In this document: positions 6,176 to 51,817 of the stretch, piece after piece | How positions within the stretch are numbered: the first letter of the stretch is position 1 | Layout of the letters: each line of letters starts with the position of its first letter | Source of the DNA: Ephemeroptericola cinctiostellae | GTDB lineage: Bacteria; Pseudomonadota; Gammaproteobacteria; Burkholderiales; Burkholderiaceae | DNA: 64,000 nucleotides | Direction of reading: 5' to 3' | NCBI RefSeq assembly: GCF_003339525.1 | Contig: NZ_CP031124.1 | Location: 930,001-994,000, forward strand | Notes under the pieces: model-generated | The model's input: the letters and a program-made list of their open reading frames with translations, nothing else | Told to the model about the DNA's origin: nothing | The model's database searches: none | Position numbers and translations under genes: made by a program

Positions 6176-6251
6176 GGGGGATTAGCTCAGCTGGGAGAGC
6201 ACCTGCTTTGCAAGCAGGGGGTCGTCGGTTCGATCCCGTCATCCTCCACCA
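6176..6251 (+). tRNA. tRNA-Ala (anticodon TGC)
   Basis: 76 nt with CCA encoded at 6249-6251. The acceptor stem GGGGGAT pairs with ATCCTCC (one G-U). Anticodon TGC is at 6209-6211 and the T-loop GGTTCGATCC is present. It is the first of two tRNAs in the 16S-23S spacer. Confidence 0.98.
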
Positions 6252-6270
6252 AGAATGTTGGATCGAAGAC

Positions 6271-6347
6271 GGGTCTTTAGCTCAGTTGGTTAGAGCACTG
6301 TGTTGATAACGCAGGGGTCGATGGTTCGAGTCCATCAAGACCCACCA
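6271..6347 (+). tRNA. tRNA-Ile (anticodon GAT)
   Basis: 77 nt with CCA encoded at 6345-6347. The acceptor stem GGGTCTT pairs with AAGACCC. Anticodon GAT is at 6305-6307 and the T-loop is GGTTCGAGTCC. It lies 19 bases after tRNA-Ala, the reverse of the usual Ile-then-Ala order. Confidence 0.98.
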
Positions 6348-6750: not shown

Positions 6751-9625
<2,875 letters not shown>

Positions 9626-27862: not shown

Positions 27863-28353
27863 GCCAGAATTGGCTTAAGTGTTCATTCATTTTTTCTGAC
27901 AATGACCAAAAGTGGAGCAGCACATAATTTGATACAAGCGTACCCTTTAAAATCAACAGTTTATATTTTTAATTTTATATTTGTTTTGAATCAAATGCTT
28001 ACCGTGTATCAAGTTATGTGTTGCTCCATTTTTCATGTGGAAAAAATGAATAAGGTTTTCTTTTATGTGTGTCAGATAATCCATCTTTTCTTTTGAAATG
28101 CCGTTCCCAATGTTATCAATTGACATTAACACACTAAGTTCAGGGGATTTTCCCCTAAAGAGTGCCAAATATCAGCAGCATCTTTCAATGTGTCGCATTC
28201 ATGATTTGATGCACTCTACAATTTTTGGGTTTCCAAGTTGAGATTTATTCATGACTCCCGCCTCTTTTTCGTAGTTACCTACTTTAGGTTTTTATAAAAA
28301 AATTATGCGTTTTGAAAGAGTTTCATTCAAAACAAAAGCACAGCCTGACGCAA
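27863..28353. other. Gene-free AT-rich segment holding an inverted-repeat element
   Basis: 491 bases between the CoA transferase and the 3' end of the interrupted NTPase gene. It holds the 116-bp inverted-repeat element and a small perfect hairpin AGGGGA-TTT-TCCCCT at 28142-28156. Otherwise I see no gene. Short open frames (for example 27902-28096) cross the repeat and look non-coding. Confidence 0.7.
27913..28028. repeat. MITE-like inverted-repeat element
   Basis: The left arm begins TGGAGCAGCACATAATTTGA (27913 on, running to about 27939). The right arm ends TATGTGTTGCTCCA at 28028 (from about 28002). Over about 27 bases the arms match as an inverted repeat with only a few differences, around a very A/T-rich centre of about 60 bases. 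No transposase is inside, and no clear target duplication flanks it. It could be a miniature transposable element or a large stem-loop. Confidence 0.7.
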
Positions 28354-29406
28354 CTAGTCTGCACCATGGGTATGCTCGTATTGCTCACCAATAAAACCGC
28401 CAATAATTTTATCCTTCGACTGCAATTTATAAATCGCCCCTTGATTGGCAATACCTCCCACATGTTCGTGTTTAGAATAGCTATATGCCATTTTCTCAGA
28501 GAGCCCACACCAAAAGAACGTTAGCTTATCGGCTGAGAGCCATTTCAATAAACTATCTTGTTCAATAAGTAGCATACGATTTTTACCTAATACAGAAACA
28601 AAAACAGGAAGGTTGTTTTGGTCTCGAATTTCTATCGTATTATTTTCTGAATTAAGAATTGGCGCGGAAAGGAAACCTAGCACGCTTTTCACTCCACGAT
28701 ACATTGCGGGATTAGGCAACAAAATATTTGCTATATCGCAGCTCAACAGAGAAACGCCTGAATACTTATCGTTTTTATTTCTCCAAAAACTATCGTTTTG
28801 TGCACAACCCTCTTCAATCTGAGTAAAAGTACTTTTCCAAGGGTATTCAGAAATCCAAGCTTGCCGGTCTTCTGCTAATTGAATTCCATTGCCGAAAAAG
28901 CGTTCCGTTCGCAAGTTGCTTAAAATCTTCTGATGTCCTTTTGAAGGAGTAGTCATAGCACGAATATGAGTCCATTGACTCATTTTTGCTTCTGCACTCA
29001 AACCGTAGTTATCTTCACCAAAATCTTTAGCTTCTTCAGCATCCCAATTACCCAATAAACATATCCAAGTTTTACCATCAAACTGTTGTGATAAGAAACT
29101 TGTTATGTCCTCAAAACCTGAGGCTACCCATTGTTTTCTATCCTCATCACTTAATGCTTTTGGCAAGGTTATTTCACGATTGATATTAAAAACATTTAGC
29201 GCATCTGCAAATTCTGAGTTACCCCATCCTTCTTCATCGTCTTGTGAAATATGGTTTGAGATTGCAATTGATGGATTGTAATTTCTTTGCTCAAGTTCAC
29301 TAAATGATTTTATCCAGCGTGGATCATTATCCCAACTTAAGTGCAAAGTTGAGTCTGCAAGTAACCCAAGGTACTCATAGAGTCCAATCCATTGATATTT
29401 TTTTGA
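28354..29406 (-). pseudogene. C-terminal fragment of the IS-interrupted STAND NTPase
   Basis: The frame is open from the IS end (29406) to a stop at 28354, about 351 codons. It continues the N-terminal gene exactly: after removal of the IS and one target copy the junction reads ERIS-KKYQWIGLYEYLGLL and then STLHLSWDNDPRW. The fragment has no good start codon; the first candidate is a TTG at 29346. By position it is the C-terminal part of the sensor region. I see no recognisable catalytic motif in it. GC is low like the N-terminal part. Confidence 0.8.
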
Positions 29407-30149
29407 GGGTCTTAGGAAGCAGAATTCAATAACGGCTCATCTCGCAGCATGTTAAGAAGCACTTTATACAAGTCGCTTTTGCGATGGTTAAACCTAAATT
29501 CAGTTTCCTTCAAATGCAGTAAAAATGTGTTTTTCGGAACGCCGTTAAACTGAACCAAACGACGTTTAGCATAGCTCCAGAATGATTCTATCCCATTCAC
29601 ATGATTAGAACCATTTACAAACTCATCGGCACCATGATTCACCCGGAAGTGTTTATCAAACCCGATGTCCACCAAGCCATTATAGCCGCGCCAACCATCG
29701 GTATGGATAACGCTGTTAATGTCTGCTTTCCCACGAATAATGGCTTGCAGGCTGGCTTTGGAAGCATCAGGCACAATCTCAGTGTAGATATTGCCATCAC
29801 GTTTGAGTAAACCAAACACGATGGTTTTACCTGAAGCACCACGTCCGCGTTTACCTCGAACACGATGCGGACCAAAATATGATTCGTCGGCTTCCAACTC
29901 TCCTTTGAGTGGTGAGCCTTGGAGACAAACAATCACCAAACGACGACGAATCTTGAGGTAAATGGTGTTGATTGAACGAACGGATATGCCGCTTAACGCA
30001 GCACATTCCGTTGCCGTTAAATCAAGGGCAAAATACCGTAAAATTTGGCGAAACTTCGCTTCGCTAATTTTTGAATGTTTGAAGTACTTGTTTTTCATTT
30101 GGTCTCAAGAGCTTAGCGCATATTTTAATGCGTTTGCTTCCTAAGACCC
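29407..30149 (-). mobile_element. IS1595-family insertion sequence (ISXO2/IS1016-like)
   Basis: 743 bp bounded by perfect 15-bp terminal inverted repeats, GGGTCTTAGGAAGCA at 29407-29421 and TGCTTCCTAAGACCC at 30135-30149. The 7-bp direct repeat TTTTTGA flanks it (29400-29406 and 30150-30156), within an A/T-rich run typical of targets of this family (usual duplication 8 bp). It holds one transposase gene in the same direction as the host gene it splits. Intact repeats and frame suggest a recent insertion. Confidence 0.95.
29412..30098 (-). CDS. IS1595-family DDE transposase
   Basis: 228 residues. The N-terminal helix-turn-helix region includes LTATECAALSGISVRSIN. DDE residues: Asp in ELEADESYFGPHR, Asp in VIHTDGWRGYNGL, and the third acidic residue in HVNGIESFWSYAKRRL, the ISXO2-like signature. 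It reaches almost to the right terminal repeat, as in short IS1016-like elements. The first 35 bases overlap the read-through tail of the interrupted NTPase. Confidence 0.95.
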   Translation of the reverse strand: MKNKYFKHSKISEAKFRQILRYFALDLTATECAALSGISVRSINTIYLKIRRRLVIVCLQGSPLKGELEADESYFGPHRVRGKRGRGASGKTIVFGLLKRDGNIYTEIVPDASKASLQAIIRGKADINSVIHTDGWRGYNGLVDIGFDKHFRVNHGADEFVNGSNHVNGIESFWSYAKRRLVQFNGVPKNTFLLHLKETEFRFNHRKSDLYKVLLNMLRDEPLLNSAS

Positions 30150-33100
30150 TTTTTGAAATACGTTCAATTTTAGAGCGTTGCCTCCCAATGTAACGCAAAT
30201 TTTTCTCAAAATCACCAAATTGCTCAGGGCTCCATCCCAAATCAATAACTCTTTGCCAAATATACCGTCTGGCTTTTTTATCATCTGCGCGTGCTTCATA
30301 CCAATTAATATTGCCCGTCTCTATCATTTCTAGCAACGCAGGTAAATCCACAAAATGATAAATAGCACTGCCCATTACATAACGACCAAAGTCACCATAC
30401 ATACCCATGTCTTTTGGTTTAAGTGAGCTCGATATTGTGAAGTAACCATCCTTACCCTCAAATTTGCTTACTTGCTCTTCTGACCAAATTTCAGGAAGTT
30501 TTTTTTCTGACCGATTTTCAATATCATTTATAGCTTCGCAATCTAACGCCCCTTGAGAACAAGCAAAGCGTATGATGAACTCAGCATAGTCCCTCATCAT
30601 AATATTGGGTTCAATAAGCTCTTTTGACCAAAAATTTTGGCGCACGTATTGACCTAGCTTGGTTACAACTTCGGGCTTGCATGCAGGCAATGCGCCACAC
30701 AATACTGCCAGTAGTCGCTCCTTAACATAAGGGTCATTAACATTAAAAAAGCTCTCACACAGACCCATGACACAAACCTCAGTGGGGTGCTTGTACAATA
30801 TGCGTATTGCAATATCGGTGGCCTTATTTCGTAAAATTCGATTAGTTGAACTGGTTAACCACAATAATGGGATAAGTGTTAGTTGTACCTGTCCTTCTGA
30901 AAGTAAATTGGCAGAGTTATCAACCCAATGCAAAAATTCTCCTACTATGCCTTCGCTCGTGTCTTCAATACTTTCATAAGCAAGTACAACACTCCAACGT
31001 TTGTCTCTTTCTGACAAGCTTAATGAGCACAGATGCTTATGCAGGAAATTTGCATTAAAAGGATGCTGGGGTATACAGGCATACTCAAATAATTTACTGT
31101 AGACCTCATAATCATCTCGCGCAATTGTATTTGCCCAGAGTAAGAAGTATGTTTTAACTTTTTCTGCATCTTTTTGAAAGTCTCGCCAATTTAGTGTATC
31201 GAGCCAAGCATTCCACATTTCTTTCTTATCATGGTCAAATGAATCCATAAAAGGCTGCTCATTTGGAGAACGATGAATGACAGGTCTAAGTGGACACTCT
31301 ACCAATTCAACACCTATTTTCTCTGGCAACAACAGTCCCAAAGCAAACAATCTTGGTTGCGCTCTCCAGTGTAAATGACGTTCTTCTTGATGATAGGTTT
31401 GTGTCAGATTAGGCAGGATTTTAGACTGCCATTTTTTTAGCAAATCGGTCTTTGTCTGCACATCTTTGAGCATGACTTCAACAGTCCGAATATCGGCAAA
31501 GCGCTCGTACTGTAATCTAACGTTCGTAATAAAAGATGATACCGTTGAGTTTTGACTATGCATTTCACACATAAAGCCTTCGGATAGGAGTTTATAATAA
31601 AGTCCTTTATTTTTTGTATCGTTACTAAAATATTGCTTACAAATTGTTTTTGCATCTACATCGCTAATCCACATATCATCTGATTCTGACATTTTATGAA
31701 TTATGTCTGTCATCGCTTGTGTGGTTGACTCGCTTGGACAATCAATTATCCTTTCGATGTTCTCAGCAATTCTTGCTTCCCACGCGCGTATAACGTTCAT
31801 AAAAGTTAGAGTGCCCTGCGGCAATACTTTTCCTTGATATGCCTCACATAAAGTCTTTAAAAATAATGGATTCTTAAATTCATTATTTAACGTTGGTTGA
31901 TGATGAGTTTTTACTTGATAACCATTAAAGTATGCTAATACCGCCTCGTTAAAATTCAAATCAAAACCGTGGTGCGATATTAAGAAATGTTTATTTTCTA
32001 GGCTTGGGTTGATGTTGGCTTTTAATAAATCATCTCGACAACTTAGGATTAATTTCACGTTGGAAAATTGGCTTATAGTCATTGCCAGTGCAGCTAAATG
32101 CGCATTCCAAAGAGTTCTTTCAGGGGTCTCATTAATTGCATCAATAAGCACATAAGCAGGTTTACCGCTTATATCTGCCAGTGAAGATAAACAAGACATC
32201 AATTGGTCAAATGTCCCTTGCCAATTAAGTTGCTCTACTATCTGTTGTTTGGGGTCGTTTGCATTCGTAAAACGCTCGCCAATTAACAATAGACAAGCAT
32301 TGCCAGCTTCAATCAAACCCTCTGCCGTCGAGGCCATTAAGTGGCTTTTCCCACTGCCTGCATTACCCGCAACAAGTAAAAACAGTGATGAATTTGATTT
32401 AATATATTGCTTAAGTTTTTCTTCTAGCTCTGTCTGTTCACTACGAAAGTTATATAAGCCAGATTCTCTTTCTAAATCCCATTTAATGGTATCTAATGGT
32501 TTCGGTTTGGATTCTTTTTGCTCTTGTATAGTCGATTCAAACTCGCTTAATGCGCTAATTAATTGCCTAACAGCTTCTTCCAAATCGTTTAATACCTCGA
32601 TTAATTGGCAAGATTGTAGTGTGATGTTGCCTTCAAACAGTTCCGTAGATAGGCTCGTCACAAGGCTTTGAACTTGCACCAGCTTTTCGTTGAGAGCGGC
32701 AACATTTGTTTCCTTAACTTTTCTAGCTACAAATTGAAACGTTTTTTGCCATCCTTTCAAAATATCAGAGCTCAGTTTTTTATAATCATCGATTATGTTT
32801 CCCCTCCCCATCAGAAGGTTCAGGGTTTGCTCTGATTGAGTTTTTTGATGGAGTTTTGGCGTATAACGATGATGTAGTTGATTAATACAGATTTTAGTTT
32901 GTTCAACGACCCATCTGTAATCAAAATATGAGCAATCAAACCAGTATGATTGGATGTGGCGTGTCTCTGGTCGTATAAGGTAGTCGAGTAATTCCGACTC
33001 ACCAATCCACTTAAAAACAATTGATGAATTTGTGGCTTTGCTTTTCCACGACTTTACCCTTGCCTCCCAAGTCTTTATTTGTGCAGGAGACCTATTAAGA

Positions 33101-33414
33101 GGGACGCACACATAGTACTCTACAATGTCGGGATGATTTTTTATCATTGTCTCAACCGACTTGTTTATTTGAGACCATTGGCTTGGGGTTAATTTCGAGA
33201 AATACTTAGCTTGTAACCCGATAATTCGCCCATCTTCTAAATGACATTTAGCCTCAACTCCGCCATCGCCGCCAGCCCCATTAATACGCTCCATCTTAGT
33301 GATTTTAGATTGAATTATAAAGGGGAATAATTGACAACAAAACTCCTCAAAACCACTGTTTTGAGAGCCATTGTGCACTTTGATATTCGTAAAACTTATC
33401 GATTTGTTCGCCAT
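30064..33414 (-). CDS. STAND-type NTPase with Mrr-like nuclease domain (Avs/AVAST-like), truncated by an IS
   Basis: A 1,116-codon frame. The first 1,087 residues are native; the last 29 (KRVLGSKRIKI onward) are read from the IS. Residues 20-75 look like a PD-(D/E)xK Mrr-type nuclease: FEEF at 22-25, GGDGGVE at 48-54 and QAK at 68-70. A helical region follows (200-330), then a STAND ATPase: Walker A GNAGSGKS at 350-357, Walker B YVLIDAINE at 421-429 and sensor Arg in LILSCRD at 455-461. The remainder is a long helical sensor-like region. Nuclease plus STAND ATPase plus long C-terminus is the plan of Avs antiphage proteins, which sense phage proteins and then degrade DNA. That function is inferred; no homology search was possible. 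Confidence 0.75.
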   Translation of the reverse strand: MANKSISFTNIKVHNGSQNSGFEEFCCQLFPFIIQSKITKMERINGAGGDGGVEAKCHLEDGRIIGLQAKYFSKLTPSQWSQINKSVETMIKNHPDIVEYYVCVPLNRSPAQIKTWEARVKSWKSKATNSSIVFKWIGESELLDYLIRPETRHIQSYWFDCSYFDYRWVVEQTKICINQLHHRYTPKLHQKTQSEQTLNLLMGRGNIIDDYKKLSSDILKGWQKTFQFVARKVKETNVAALNEKLVQVQSLVTSLSTELFEGNITLQSCQLIEVLNDLEEAVRQLISALSEFESTIQEQKESKPKPLDTIKWDLERESGLYNFRSEQTELEEKLKQYIKSNSSLFLLVAGNAGSGKSHLMASTAEGLIEAGNACLLLIGERFTNANDPKQQIVEQLNWQGTFDQLMSCLSSLADISGKPAYVLIDAINETPERTLWNAHLAALAMTISQFSNVKLILSCRDDLLKANINPSLENKHFLISHHGFDLNFNEAVLAYFNGYQVKTHHQPTLNNEFKNPLFLKTLCEAYQGKVLPQGTLTFMNVIRAWEARIAENIERIIDCPSESTTQAMTDIIHKMSESDDMWISDVDAKTICKQYFSNDTKNKGLYYKLLSEGFMCEMHSQNSTVSSFITNVRLQYERFADIRTVEVMLKDVQTKTDLLKKWQSKILPNLTQTYHQEERHLHWRAQPRLFALGLLLPEKIGVELVECPLRPVIHRSPNEQPFMDSFDHDKKEMWNAWLDTLNWRDFQKDAEKVKTYFLLWANTIARDDYEVYSKLFEYACIPQHPFNANFLHKHLCSLSLSERDKRWSVVLAYESIEDTSEGIVGEFLHWVDNSANLLSEGQVQLTLIPLLWLTSSTNRILRNKATDIAIRILYKHPTEVCVMGLCESFFNVNDPYVKERLLAVLCGALPACKPEVVTKLGQYVRQNFWSKELIEPNIMMRDYAEFIIRFACSQGALDCEAINDIENRSEKKLPEIWSEEQVSKFEGKDGYFTISSSLKPKDMGMYGDFGRYVMGSAIYHFVDLPALLEMIETGNINWYEARADDKKARRYIWQRVIDLGWSPEQFGDFEKNLRYIGRQRSKIERISKRVLGSKRIKICAKLLRPNEKQVLQTFKN

Positions 33415-33593
33415 TTATTCACTTCTTACAATTACTTGAATCAATCCGCACTAAACTTGTTAGCACACACCATACCTAATCTAAACCATTTTTAGGTACA
33501 TATAATTGTTTTTATAATATATGTATTTGCAATCGATTGGTAAGCAAATGCTGTTAAAAACTCCAAGATGACCAAAAACCGCCCAGTACAAAA
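33415..33593. other. Upstream region of the NTPase gene
   Basis: An A/T-rich stretch between the NTPase start and the tRNA-Phe terminator. It should hold the NTPase promoter on the minus strand, but I cannot assign -35 and -10 boxes with confidence. No partial copy of the tRNA-Phe 3' end (attachment site) is visible. Confidence 0.4.
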
Positions 33594-33626
33594 CAAAAAA
33601 GCCAACTCCTAAAAGTTGGCTTTTTC
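33594..33626 (-). terminator. Terminator of tRNA-Phe
   Basis: AAGCCAACT and AGTTGGCTT form a stem flanked by A and T runs, so it can act in both directions. On the minus strand it follows the tRNA-Phe gene with a run of T. Confidence 0.85.
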
Positions 33627-33636
33627 ATGTATTTCT

Positions 33637-33712
33637 TGGTGGCCTGGGGCGGAATCGAACCGCCGACACAAGGATTTTCAATCCTCTGCTCTACCGACTG
33701 AGCTACCTGGCC
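33637..33712 (-). tRNA. tRNA-Phe (anticodon GAA)
   Basis: 76 nt with CCA encoded. The acceptor stem GGCCAGG pairs with CCAGGCC, the D-arm is GCTCAGTCGGTAGAGC, anticodon GAA is at 33677-33679 in a TTGAAAA loop, and the T-loop is GGTTCGATTCC. The 3' end faces the AT-rich NTPase segment. Confidence 0.97.
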
Positions 33713-46926: not shown

Positions 46927-49758
46927 TTACGCTTCATACTCACTCACAGGTATGCAGCTACAAAACAAATTTCGATCGCCGTACACATTGTCCACCCGAG
47001 CCACTGGCGGCCAGTATTTACGGGTGCGCAATGAAGCGACCGGATACGCGGCTTGCTCACGTGGGTAAGCATGTGTCCATTCGTTTGCACACACCACGGC
47101 TGCGGTGTGGGGGGCGTGCTTCAAAGGGTTGTCCTCCGCGGGTAATTCACCTGCTTCGACTTGGGCGATTTCGGCACGGATGGTGGCGAAAGCGGTGATG
47201 AAACGGTCGAGTTCAGCGAGAGGTTCGGATTCAGTGGGCTCAATCATGAGTGTGCCTGCGACGGGGAAACTCATGGTCGGGGCGTGGAAACCAAAATCCA
47301 TCAAGCGTTTGGCGATGTCATCAACGGTGATGCCTGCTGTGTCTTTGACGCCGCGCACATCGACGATGCATTCATGGGCAACGAGGCCATTTTCAGCAGT
47401 GTAGAGGATCGGGAAGTGCTCAGAGATGCACTTTGCCAAATAGTTGGCCGATAAAATCGCCACTTTTGACGCTTCAGTCAGACCCGCCGCACCCATCATG
47501 GCAATGTACATCCATGTGATTGGCAATACGCCTGCGCTGCCGTAAGGCGCAGCTGAAACGGCGCCGATCCCATGTGCATCGCGCTGGTAGCCAATGGCGT
47601 TGAGGTTGGGTAGAAATTGTTCCAAATGCGCCGCAACGCAAACAGGACCGATGCCAGGGCCACCACCGCCATGAGGGATGGCGAAGGTTTTGTGCAAGTT
47701 CAAATGCGAGACATCACCACCGAATTGGCCTGGGGCACACAGTCCGACCATGGCGTTCATGTTGGCGCCATCAACGTAGACTTGACCGCCGTGGGCGTGT
47801 ACGGTGTCGCAAATTTCAGTGATGCTTTTCTCAAATACGCCGTGGGTTGATGGGTAGGTGATCATCAAAGCGGCGAGGTTCGCACTGTGTTGCTCGGCTT
47901 TGGCTTTCAAATCGGCCACGTCAACGTTGCCGCGTTCATCACAAGCGACCACGACCACACTCATGCCCACCATTGCGGCGGAAGCGGGGTTGGTGCCGTG
48001 TGCCGATGAAGGGATGAGGCAAATGTTGCGGTGTGATTCGCCACGACTGGTGTGGTATTTTTGGATGATGAGTAAACCCGCGTATTCGCCTTGTGAACCT
48101 GCATTGGGTTGCAAACTGACCGCGGCATAGCCTGTTGCCGCGACCAGCATGGCTTCAACTTCTTGAATCATGGCGCGGTAGCCAACCGTTTGCGAATTGG
48201 GTGCGAATGGATGGATTTGTCCAAACTCAGGCCACGTCACGGGCAGCATTTCACTGGTTGCATTGAGCTTCATTGTGCACGAACCAAGCGGGATCATGGT
48301 GCGGTCGAGTGCCAAATCTTTGTCCGACAATTCGCGCAAATAGCGCAACATCGCGTGTTCTGAGTGATGCGTGTTGAAAATTGGATGCGTCAAAAATGCA
48401 CTTTCACGACGCAATGCGGCTGGAATGGTGTCGGCATCGTGGTGCACGGGAACGGCGTCAAACAAGGTGAGCAGGGCATGGACGTCTGCAGCTGTGGTTG
48501 TTTCATCGATTGAAATGCCGACGTGCTGCGCATCAATGGCGCGTAAATTCAAACCAGCCACGTGGGCGGCGTGGTGCAATGCCGATGCATCTTTGACTTT
48601 GAGTGTCAAGGTGTCGAACCATGTGGTGTTGACCACAGCGACATGGGCTGCGGTCAGTGCCGCGGCGACCGATGAGGTCAAACGGTGCACACGTGCGCCG
48701 ATTTTTTTCAAACCATCGGGGCCGTGATAGACCGCATACATGCTGGCCATGATCGCCAATAAGGCTTGAGCCGTGCAAATGTTTGAGGTGGCTTTTTCAC
48801 GACGAATGTGTTGCTCACGGGTTTGCAGTGCGAGACGCAATGCTGGGTTGCCTTGTGCATCAACCGATACCCCGACCAATCGGCCAGGCATGGAGCGTTT
48901 GAATGCATCTTTGGTCGCCATGAAGGCGGCATGTGGGCCGCCGAAACCGAACGGCACACCGAAACGTTGCGTGTTGCCAATGACGATGTCCGCACCCCAT
49001 TCCCCAGGCGATTTGAGTTGAGTTAAAGCGAGCAAATCTGAGCAGGCGATGACCGCTTTGCCTTGTGCGTGCGCTGCCGTCGCGAGTTCGCTGTAATCGT
49101 TCAGCGCACCACTGGCCGCAGGGTATTGTACTAAAACGGCGAAGCAGTCATTGGTGATCGCATCGTTCAAATTGGCCGATACGCGCACTTCAATGCCCAG
49201 CGGTTTGGCGCGGGTTTGGATGATTTCGAGGGTTTGCGGAAAAATGTCTTCGGAGACATAAAAAATGTCATTTTTTAATTTTGAATTGCGCAATGCGAGC
49301 GTCATCGCCTCTGCGGCCGCTGTGGCCTCATCCAGCATGGATGCATTGGCAATGTCCATGCCCGTCAAGTCGATGATCATTTGTTGATAATTCAACAACG
49401 CTTCGAGGCGACCTTGTGAAATTTCAGGCTGGTAGGGCGTGTAAGCGGTGTACCATGCTGGGTTTTCCAACACATTGCGCAGGATGACCGCAGGCGTGTG
49501 AGTGCCGTAGTAACCTTGGCCAATGAAGCTTTTCAGTACTTTGTTTTGATCGGCGTGTTCGCGCAGGCGAGCAATGGCGGCTTCTTCAGAATAGCCACGG
49601 GTGAATTCACCCAAAGCCATGTTGTCACGGCGAATGTTGTCGGGCACAACGGCGGCAATGAACTCATCCAGTGAGCCATAACCCAATGTGTGCAGCATGT
49701 GTGATTGATCGGAAATATCAGGCGCGATGTGGCGGGCGGCGAAGGTGGTGCTGGTCAT
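46927..49758 (-). CDS. gcvP: Glycine dehydrogenase (decarboxylating), P protein
   Basis: The PLP-dependent P protein of the glycine cleavage system decarboxylates glycine and passes the aminomethyl group to GcvH. 943 residues from the ATG at 49758 ([11 protein letters not shown]); the frame extends to 49887 without family similarity. [33 protein letters not shown] is the opening signature. PLP-binding Lys lies in [19 protein letters not shown] near residue 695. It is third in gcvT-gcvH-gcvP. A hairpin just before the start codon could hide its ribosome site. Confidence 0.97.
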
Positions 49759-49763
49759 AAGAG

Positions 49764-49790
49764 TCCCAAAAGTAAAACCTGCTTTTGGGA
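49764..49790 (-). promoter_or_regulatory. Hairpin overlapping the gcvP ribosome binding site
   Basis: TCCCAAAAG (49764-49772) and CTTTTGGGA (49782-49790) are perfect 9-base complements with a 9-base loop. On the minus strand the 3' arm contains TTTTGGGA, whose GGGA is the likely ribosome site 5 bases before the gcvP ATG (49758). The structure could lower or regulate GcvP translation relative to GcvH. Confidence 0.6.
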
Positions 49791-49915
49791 GACCCAAGCA
49801 GCAGGTGGGTGGGTTGTAAACGCGATGGGTTCGCTCGTGTATTGGGCGAACACGTTTTGCCTGGGATGGGTTAAGCACAGCCCCCATCCATTGACTTTTA
49901 ATTCATCGCTTTGAT

Positions 49916-50481: not shown

Positions 50482-51567
50482 TTAAACCAAAACTTTGCCA
50501 TTGCGTACGAACGGCAGTTTGACAACTTTTGCATTGAGTTTTTTATCGCGGATGATGACTTGAACGGTGTCACCGATTTCGACGCCGACGGGTACACGAG
50601 CGAATGCGATGGACTGTTGCATGGTGGGGCTGAATGTACCGCTGGTGGTTTCGCCCTCGCCATGCACTGTTTCAACGGTTTGATGGCTGCGTAAAACGCC
50701 TTTGTCCAATAAAACCAAGCCGACGAGTTGTGCTGATTGGCTGAGGGCTGATTTGCCGATGAAATCGCGCTCGCTGACCAAGTCAACCGTCCATGCCAAA
50801 CCTGCGTTGAGCGGGTTGATGTTTTCATCCATGTCTTGACCGTACAAATTCATTCCTGCCTCTAAACGCAGTGTATCGCGTGCACCGAGGCCTGCGGGGC
50901 GAACACCGTTGGCGGTCAGTTGAGTCCACACATCGGCCGCGATGGTCGCAGGAACAGCGATTTCAAAACCATCTTCACCCGTATAACCCGTGCGAGCCAC
51001 CATCCATTCGCCGCCATCGTGTTCAATGCGTGCGGTATTGAACGGTTTGAGGGGTTCGGATGGTGCTTGTGTGAATGGAAATGTTGCCCATACTTTGGCA
51101 CGTGCGTTGGGGCCTTGTACGGCGATCAGGGCAAAGTCTGGGCGGGGTTCGATGACCAAGCCAAACTGACCTTCAGCATTTTGTGCATTTAACCATTCGA
51201 TGTCTTTATCGGCGGTGCCTGCATTGACCACGAGGCGGAAAAAGTCCTCGCTGAAATAATAAACGATCAAATCATCAATCACGCCACCATTAGGGCGCAA
51301 CATGCACGAATACAGCGCTTTGCCTGCGATTTGCAACTTATCGACGTTGTTGGCCAAAACATAGCGTAAAAAATCGCGAACTTTATCACCTGTGATGTCC
51401 ACGACGCGCATGTGTGAGACGTCAAACATGCCCGCATCGCTGCGGACAGTGTGGTGTTCTTCGATTTGAGAGCCATAATTGACGGGCATGTCCCAGCCGC
51501 CAAAATCGACCATGCGCGCTTGAGCGGCAATGTGAGTGGAGTGTAAAACGGTGTGTTTTAAAGTCAT
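50482..51567 (-). CDS. gcvT: Glycine cleavage system T protein (aminomethyltransferase)
   Basis: Transfers the one-carbon unit from the lipoyl arm of GcvH to tetrahydrofolate and releases ammonia. 361 residues from the ATG at 51567 ([12 protein letters not shown]); the frame extends 8 codons upstream. [26 protein letters not shown] and the catalytic Asp region FDVSHM are at the N-terminus; [13 protein letters not shown] and [16 protein letters not shown] follow. First gene of the operon, behind a glycine riboswitch. Confidence 0.97.
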
Positions 51568-51620
51568 GGTGGTGCATCCCGGGAAAGCCACGCGGTGTGC
51601 TGTGGCTTGTGAATAAAGTC

Positions 51621-51813
51621 CCGTTCTGTCCTTGATACCTGAGAGATTGTGGCAAAGTCTGTTCTTTGCGCGCCCCTTCGGTGGTCAGCGCGTGCTGACG
51701 CTCTCCAGAATGATATGAATCTGTTCGATAGTCCTTTTGCCTGAGAGTTTTTGGGAATTCACCTTCGGCGACTGTGGGTCAGATTGACCCGACAATGCTC
51801 TCCTAACGAACGG
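51621..51813 (-). ncRNA. Tandem glycine riboswitch upstream of gcvTHP
   Basis: Two glycine aptamers in series on the minus strand. Aptamer 1 covers about 51727-51813 (GGAGAGC near 51797-51803, CACCGAAGG-type core near 51760, ACTCTCAGGCAAAAGGAC near 51731-51748). Aptamer 2 covers about 51621-51708 (GGAGAGCG near 51699-51706, ACCGAAGGGG near 51673-51682, ATCTCTCAGGTATCAAGGAC near 51629-51648). These are the gcvT-motif consensus blocks. Glycine binding turns on the cleavage operon. Confidence 0.95.
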
Positions 51814-51817
51814 TGTC

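What the first reader, a model, noticed from the sequence alone, without database searches (positions are those of the whole stretch)
28354..33414. A large Avs-like defence NTPase split by an IS element and reconstructable as one frame
Seen directly: two minus-strand frames (30064-33414 and 28354-29406) are separated only by an IS1595-family element with perfect 15-bp ends and a 7-bp target repeat. Removing the IS and one target copy joins ERIS to KKYQWIG in frame, giving about 1,436 residues. The product has an Mrr-like nuclease motif set (D50, Q68, K70), a STAND ATPase (Walker A 350-357, Walker B 421-429, Arg sensor) and a long C-terminus. Known: Avs proteins combine an N-terminal nuclease, a STAND ATPase and a C-terminal phage-protein sensor. 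Inferred: this is an Avs-type antiphage sensor, of an unassigned or divergent subtype.
Basis: partly seen in the sequence, partly recalled or inferred. Interest (0 to 1): 0.8.

Follow-up and report, generated by a model that had tools for sequence, protein, structure and literature searches.

The report
Phage-defence Avs2 gene broken by transposon
This is a large bacterial anti-phage sensor gene of a known type (Avs2) that a small jumping DNA element has recently cut in two, so it is an ordinary, probably switched-off member of a known defence family.

Summary
Two minus-strand frames (30064-33414 and 28354-29406) flank a 743-bp IS1595-family element (29407-30149) with perfect 15-bp ends and a 7-bp target repeat. 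I compared the pieces apart and never joined them. Of 27 relatives, 16 are hit by both pieces, in order on one protein in 16 of 16; in three, N ends at residue 1057 and C starts at 1060. The cut falls in a motif, R-x-[GS]-[KE]-K-Y-[QG], present in 13 of 13 comparators.

The type can be named. Both pieces match PADLOC Avs2 profiles (3.6e-205 and 6.2e-15). The C-piece family profile matches the solved Avs2 (9o4e) at 3.4e-115. Residues 1-170 fold confidently as a PD-(D/E)XK-type nuclease, best PDB match Avs4. So it is a distant Avs2, not an unassigned subtype, though below NCBIfam's Avs2 equivalog cut-off.

The element has 12 full copies, 11 identical: the break looks recent. The gene as it stands cannot make its last 350 residues in the same chain and is most likely inactive (inference; phage sensing untested). 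New member of a known kind; low interest.

The parts
30150..33414 (-). 5' piece of the avs2 gene (N-terminal nuclease, STAND ATPase, start of the C-terminal region)
   Evidence: PADLOC Avs2 PDLC02164 E 3.6e-205 on the 1116-aa ORF, 3.4e-203 on residues 1-1085; PDB 9o4e Avs2 E 2.6e-65
32905..33414 (-). N-terminal PD-(D/E)XK (Mrr-like) nuclease domain, residues 1-170 as folded; E23, D50, E54, Q68, K70
   Evidence: AlphaFold2 mean pLDDT 89.7; best PDB fold match Avs4 8dgf E 7.0e-6, then restriction and repair nucleases; residues the same in 30 of 30 aligned rows, partly by construction for E23, Q68, K70
32344..32367 (-). Walker A GNAGSGKS, residues 350-357
   Evidence: read from the translation; G353, G355, K356 invariant in 14 of 14 rows
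32128..32154 (-). Walker B region, residues 421-429 (D425, N428, E429)
   Evidence: D425, N428, E429 invariant in 14 of 14 rows
32035..32037 (-). R460, possible sensor arginine
   Evidence: invariant in 14 of 14 rows; the role is inferred
29407..30149 (-). IS1595-family insertion sequence, 743 bp, 15-bp perfect ends
   Evidence: 12 full copies in the genome
29412..30098 (-). IS1595-family transposase, 228 aa
   Evidence: Pfam PF12762 E 6.4e-27; NCBIfam NF033547 163.7 bits, cut-off 75
30150..30156 (-). target-site repeat TCAAAAA, 5' copy
29400..29406 (-). target-site repeat TCAAAAA, 3' copy
28354..29406 (-). 3' piece of the avs2 gene (C-terminal 350 residues; begins in the conserved KKYQW motif)
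   Evidence: PADLOC Avs2 PDLC02164 E 6.2e-15 over profile 1195-1487 (from the TTG on); family profile A6 against 9o4e residues 1142-1481, E 3.4e-115
33637..33712 (-). tRNA-Phe(GAA) beside the gene
   Evidence: the same right-hand neighbour in G002 and G005, with other sequence or a contig end on the left

Best explanation
The locus is a distant avs2 gene, probably acquired horizontally, beside a tRNA-Phe, and cut by a recent insertion of a multi-copy IS1595-family element. As in characterised Avs2, an intact protein would bind a phage protein (the large terminase subunit in the published cases) with its C-terminal sensor, oligomerise through its STAND ATPase and switch on the N-terminal nuclease, killing the infected cell. 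Here the IS ends the chain about 350 residues early, so no full sensor is made and the gene is most likely inactive. Shown: family, domain order, nuclease fold (predicted), the insertion, identity of the IS copies. Inferred: acquisition, ligand, cell killing, loss of function.
For: PADLOC Avs2 profiles on both pieces and no other Avs type among the listed hits; solved Avs2 9o4e matched by the N piece and by the C-terminal family profile; predicted nuclease fold with Avs4 as best PDB match; C-terminal model best matches Avs3 bound to terminase, E 1.7e-4 (low-confidence model); the pieces are collinear on one protein in 16 of 16 relatives hit by both, of 27 tried; G+C 38% in the segment against 48% in the window; no match in 5 of 5 other genomes of the genus; 12 full IS copies, 11 identical, 11 with 7-bp repeats; IS insertion into defence genes is documented (PMC10359306: abstract and section 14 seen).
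Against: The pieces score 437 and 49 bits against NCBIfam's Avs2 equivalog cut-off of 1000 for a whole protein. Foldseek's best matches are Avs4 (N-terminus) and Avs3 (C-terminus), not Avs2; the N-terminal profile alone hits Avs4 (0.0018), not Avs2, in the PDB. The C-terminal model is poor (mean pLDDT 63.3). In 11 of 27 relatives the C piece gave no BLAST hit at 1e-3. Some Avs2 also bind another phage protein, Ksap1 (passages), so the ligand is uncertain. I did not check that PADLOC holds Avs1, 3 or 4 models. Ligand, killing and inactivity were not tested.
Confidence: 0.9

Rival explanations
1. The IS is a reversible off-switch: part of the population carries the gene without the IS and defends, while the rest is spared the cost of an abortive-infection gene.
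For: The element is complete, both pieces of the gene are otherwise open, and the near-identical copies point to recent activity.
Against: One assembled genome only; no IS-free form was seen. Eleven of 12 copies with ordinary target repeats in A/T-rich sites look like plain transposition.
Confidence: 0.05
2. The two pieces work as two proteins (a split Avs2).
For: Both pieces are long and open.
Against: The motif at the cut lies inside one open frame in 27 of 37 named-genome loci. Here the N piece ends with a tail read from the IS, and the C frame's first listed start is a TTG 19 codons past the first K of the motif. Translation signals there were not examined.
Confidence: 0.03
3. It is a new Avs subtype outside Avs2.
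For: Mostly 24-29% identity to the relatives over long matches; below the NCBIfam cut-off.
Against: Six Avs2 profiles match the N piece, 3.6e-205 to 1.3e-87; 14 of 14 members of alignment A3 match the same six; C-terminal profile against the solved Avs2 3.4e-115.
Confidence: 0.05
4. It is a non-defence STAND regulator, or the insertion is an assembly artefact.
For: Pfam names only generic P-loop families for the ATPase.
Against: Defence profiles and nuclease fold. The genome is one contig, and 11 of 12 copies of the IS lie in different flanks, each with its own 7-bp repeat.
Confidence: 0.01

Closest known systems
Avs2 (AVAST type 2), solved structure 9o4e
   Same: STAND ATPase and C-terminal region in one chain; N piece E 2.6e-65 over residues 167-1020, C-terminal family profile E 3.4e-115
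   Different: Low identity; the sequence match does not cover the nuclease domain; here the gene is cut by an IS inside the conserved R-x-G-K-K-Y-Q motif
Avs2 homologs in named genomes, e.g. L081 (Moorella thermoacetica), L086 (Pseudocitrobacter vendiensis), L109 (Methanophagales MAG), L073 (Rhodothermus marinus plasmid, annotated avs2)
   Same: Same order of parts; nuclease residues and motif kept
   Different: One open frame; 27-29% identity over the N piece, 30-42% in the nuclease domain for the 29 rows of A5
Avs4 (8dgf) and Avs3 (8dgc)
   Same: Nuclease fold like Avs4 (profile hit 0.0018); C-terminal model weakly like Avs3 bound to terminase
   Different: No Avs3 or Avs4 family among the listed PADLOC hits
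IS insertions into defence genes (PMC10359306)
   Same: Natural inactivation of a defence gene by an IS
   Different: The section seen on systems other than CRISPR covers IS1 and IS10; here an IS1595-family element in avs2

Membership tests
Avs2 (as profiled by PADLOC) | Match to Avs2 profiles along the protein | tested here: met
   N piece PDLC02164 3.6e-205 (profile 3-1008), C piece 6.2e-15 (profile 1195-1487)
Avs2 (as profiled by PADLOC) | N-terminal Mrr-like PD-(D/E)XK nuclease | tested here: met
   Predicted fold; E23, D50, E54, Q68, K70 in 30 of 30 rows. E23 and Q68-A69-K70 lie in the patterns used to find these loci, so only D50 and E54 are independent. In set A3, found otherwise, D50, E54, Q68 and K70 all stand in 9 of 11 comparators with letters there. 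No nuclease family of Pfam is listed at E 0.01 for any of 14 members
Avs2 (as profiled by PADLOC) | STAND ATPase with Walker A and B | tested here: met
   Pfam NPHP3_N 31.7 bits, cut-off 24.8; residues
Avs2 (as profiled by PADLOC) | C-terminal Avs2 region encoded directly after the rest of the gene | tested here: met
   The two pieces lie in order on one protein in 16 of 16 relatives hit by both; profile against 9o4e 1142-1481
A working Avs2 system | All parts in one continuous chain | tested here: not met
   Cut by the IS at 29407-30149; the claim is a broken member of the family, not a working one
A working Avs2 system | Recognition of the phage large terminase and ATP-dependent oligomerisation | not testable with these tools
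   From paper passages only (PMC12724215; PMC12931631)
NCBIfam Avs2 equivalog NF041813 | Whole-protein score of at least 1000 bits | tested here: not met
   437 and 49 bits for the two pieces scored apart; I do not file it as this equivalog
IS1595 family | IS1595/ISXO2-type transposase | tested here: met
   PF12762 94.9 bits, cut-off 27; NF033547 163.7 bits, cut-off 75
IS1595 family | 8-bp target repeat (recalled, from no call) | tested here: inconclusive
   7 bp in 11 of 12 copies; the 8-bp figure is from memory and may not bind

The most novel reading that the evidence does not exclude
The insertion is a reversible genetic switch that keeps a costly abortive-infection sensor off in most cells, with the A-rich KKYQ codons of the sensor's conserved motif acting as a built-in landing site for elements that prefer A/T-rich targets.
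Probability: 0.04. Interest if true: 0.5.

Novelty: new member of a known kind. Interest (0 to 1): 0.2.

Why it matters
It adds a clear case of an IS breaking an Avs sensor gene, and gives an aligned set of Avs2 relatives with a strongly conserved KKYQW motif of unknown role (all 25 rows of A6 by choice of rows; 13 of 13 comparators for the R-x-[GS]-[KE]-K-Y-[QG] pattern). It changes nothing fundamental about Avs biology.

Tried and rejected
A genome-contig scan with the N piece alone found no relative; alignment A1 was too diverse for that collection; alignment A4 gave 37 loci. I found no same-species strain: the genome collection searched holds one genome per species, so the site without the IS was not seen. 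In the nearest genus member (G002) contigs end on both sides of the site. A PDB sequence search with the C piece alone gave nothing at 0.01; the family profile did. Promoter-like sites were no more than in shuffles, 15 against a mean of 16.8. Five viral contigs match only from about residue 168 on, so they carry another N-terminus or none; not followed. Five papers in the library hold both 'Avs2' and 'AVAST'; the founding Avs paper (doi 10.1126/science.abm4096, recalled) is not held. 'KKYQW' hit one unrelated paper, so that one search found no mention of the motif in print.

A tRNA-Phe hot spot across the whole genus was considered and is not shown: only G002 and G005 share the right-hand neighbour of this tRNA-Phe; in G001 and G003 the tRNA-Phe found has other neighbours.

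Rows dropped: alignment A5 took the window and 29 of 37 loci (left out L092, L098, L104, L108, L110, L111, L115, L117). A6 took the window and 24 of the 27 loci with the motif (left out L082, L092, L110). One search used 27 of 37 loci, those with the motif.

Full report
Observation. The minus strand holds an ORF at 30064-33414 (1116 aa) and an open frame at 28354-29406. Between them lies an element of 743 bp (29407-30149) with 15-bp perfect inverted ends and the 7-bp repeat TCAAAAA on both sides. Its ORF 29412-30098 is an IS1595-family transposase.

One gene. I kept the two pieces apart. Against the 27 of 37 named-genome loci that carry the motif, the N piece hits 27 and the C piece 16 at 1e-3; in 16 of 16 hit by both, the C match follows the N match on the same protein, and in L086, L089 and L110 the N match ends at residue 1057 and the C match starts at 1060. 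The C piece missed 11 of 27. The cut lies inside R-x-[GS]-[KE]-K-Y-[QG], found in 13 of 13 comparators and, as a slightly looser pattern, in 27 of 37 loci. In the other 10 of 37 the frame at the match start ends early, runs off the contig, or is long but lacks the motif (L112).

What family. PADLOC lists Avs2 profiles for both pieces: six for the N piece (3.6e-205 to 1.3e-87) and five for the C piece (best 6.2e-15). Weaker hits to other families (DndF 1.1e-4, GajB 0.0059, PtuB1 0.0011) cover stretches of under 50 residues. NCBIfam's Avs2 model hits both pieces but below its cut-off. The solved Avs2 (9o4e) is the only PDB sequence hit of the N piece at 0.01 (2.6e-65). The C piece alone hits nothing in the PDB at 0.01, but a profile of it with 24 relatives hits 9o4e 1142-1481 at 3.4e-115. 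Those 24 rows were chosen for carrying the motif, so this says chiefly that the relatives are Avs2; the window's own row shares 17-26% identity with them. All 14 members of alignment A3 match the same six Avs2 profiles; one also matches PDC-S60.

Nuclease. A 30-row alignment of residues 1-170 gave a model of mean pLDDT 89.7 and pTM 0.85, in order helix, three strands, helix, strand. The best PDB matches are two chains of Avs4 (7.0e-6, 5.9e-5), then EcoO109I, a Pyrococcus repair endonuclease and MspJI. By sequence profile the same region hits Avs4 (0.0018) and LlaBIII (0.055) only. E23, D50, E54, Q68 and K70 stand in 30 of 30 rows; E23 and Q68-A69-K70 lie in the patterns that found the rows, so for them the count is partly by construction. 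In set A3, found otherwise, the four residues D50, E54, Q68 and K70 all stand in 9 of 11 comparators with letters there; two more comparators (L076, L013) have no letters at these columns; L016 and L017 are the two that differ. One of the 14 members of A3 carries DUF4062, which by its alignment I take to be L016.

C-terminus. The model is poor (mean pLDDT 63.3). Its only PDB matches at E 0.001 or better are two chains of Avs3 bound to a phage terminase (1.7e-4 and 3.3e-4). This fits a terminase sensor but is weak.

The insertion. The genome (2,723,407 bp, one contig) has 12 full copies, 11 identical and one with 2 differences; 11 of 12 have an exact 7-bp repeat with at most one G or C, and one copy (L023) has none. 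A thirteenth, partial copy exists. The expansion looks recent, and the A-rich codons of KKYQ fit the target preference (inference). Neither gene piece has another stop, as expected of a recent break.

Surroundings. The stretch from about 27911 to 33636, IS included, has 38% G+C against 48% for the window. In the nearest genus member, G002, similarity stops at window 27910, where a short frame runs off the contig end, and its other contig starts inside tRNA-Phe. In G005 the same tRNA-Phe and right-hand neighbour are followed on the left by a transposase-like stretch (by eye). In G001 and G003 a tRNA-Phe lies among other neighbours, so those two do not bear on this site. The N piece has no match at 0.001 in 5 of 5 other genomes of the genus. 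The Avs2 profile matches 6 of 399 genomes of the order, own included, and the N piece 5 of 369 of the class, own included, both at 1e-20. In the own genome the only other matches of the 1116-aa ORF are to its IS-derived tail, so no second avs2 was found.

Mechanism. For Avs2 the passages that I saw say that the C-terminal sensor binds the large terminase, ATP-dependent oligomerisation follows and the N-terminal effector kills the cell (PMC12724215; PMC12931631); a Klebsiella Avs2 also binds another phage protein, Ksap1 (same passages). An intact form of this gene probably worked so (inference). As it stands it yields an N piece without the last 350 residues; I expect it to be inactive (inference). 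IS inactivation of defence genes is known (PMC10359306: abstract and section 14).

Verdict. Real, well explained, ordinary: a distant Avs2 gene broken by an IS. Interest 0.2.

Noticed in passing
window 29407-30149 and loci L023-L034: The IS1595-family element has 12 full copies in the genome, 11 identical, with 7-bp A/T-rich target repeats in 11; one copy (L023) lacks a repeat.
   Followed up: yes
L012 1459-5975: An Avs2 homolog in genome G251 whose C-terminal part lies in another, overlapping frame: a second broken or frameshifted avs2, or a sequencing error.
   Followed up: no
L101 4971-8250 and L103 4977-7751: The open frame at the match start ends well before the Avs2-like match does (583 and 509 codons), so these MAG copies may be broken too.
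   Followed up: no
L068-L072: Five viral contigs encode relatives that match only from about residue 168 of the N piece: the ATPase and beyond without this nuclease domain, so perhaps another effector.
   Followed up: no
L066 1204-8190, beside tRNA-Phe 8848-8923: In genome G001 of the same genus, genes that look phage-like by eye lie beside a tRNA-Phe, but its other neighbour differs from that in the window.
   Followed up: partly
window 51616-51815 (-): Two adjacent glycine riboswitches just upstream of ORF 50482-51591; the glycine cleavage P-protein gene lies at 46927-49887.
   Followed up: no
window 6176-6347: The rRNA operon spacer has tRNA-Ala before tRNA-Ile, the reverse of the usual order (usual order recalled).
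   Followed up: no
window 27953-28168 (-): A 71-aa frame between the gene and the acetyl-CoA hydrolase gene, perhaps a gene remnant in the low-G+C segment.
   Followed up: no
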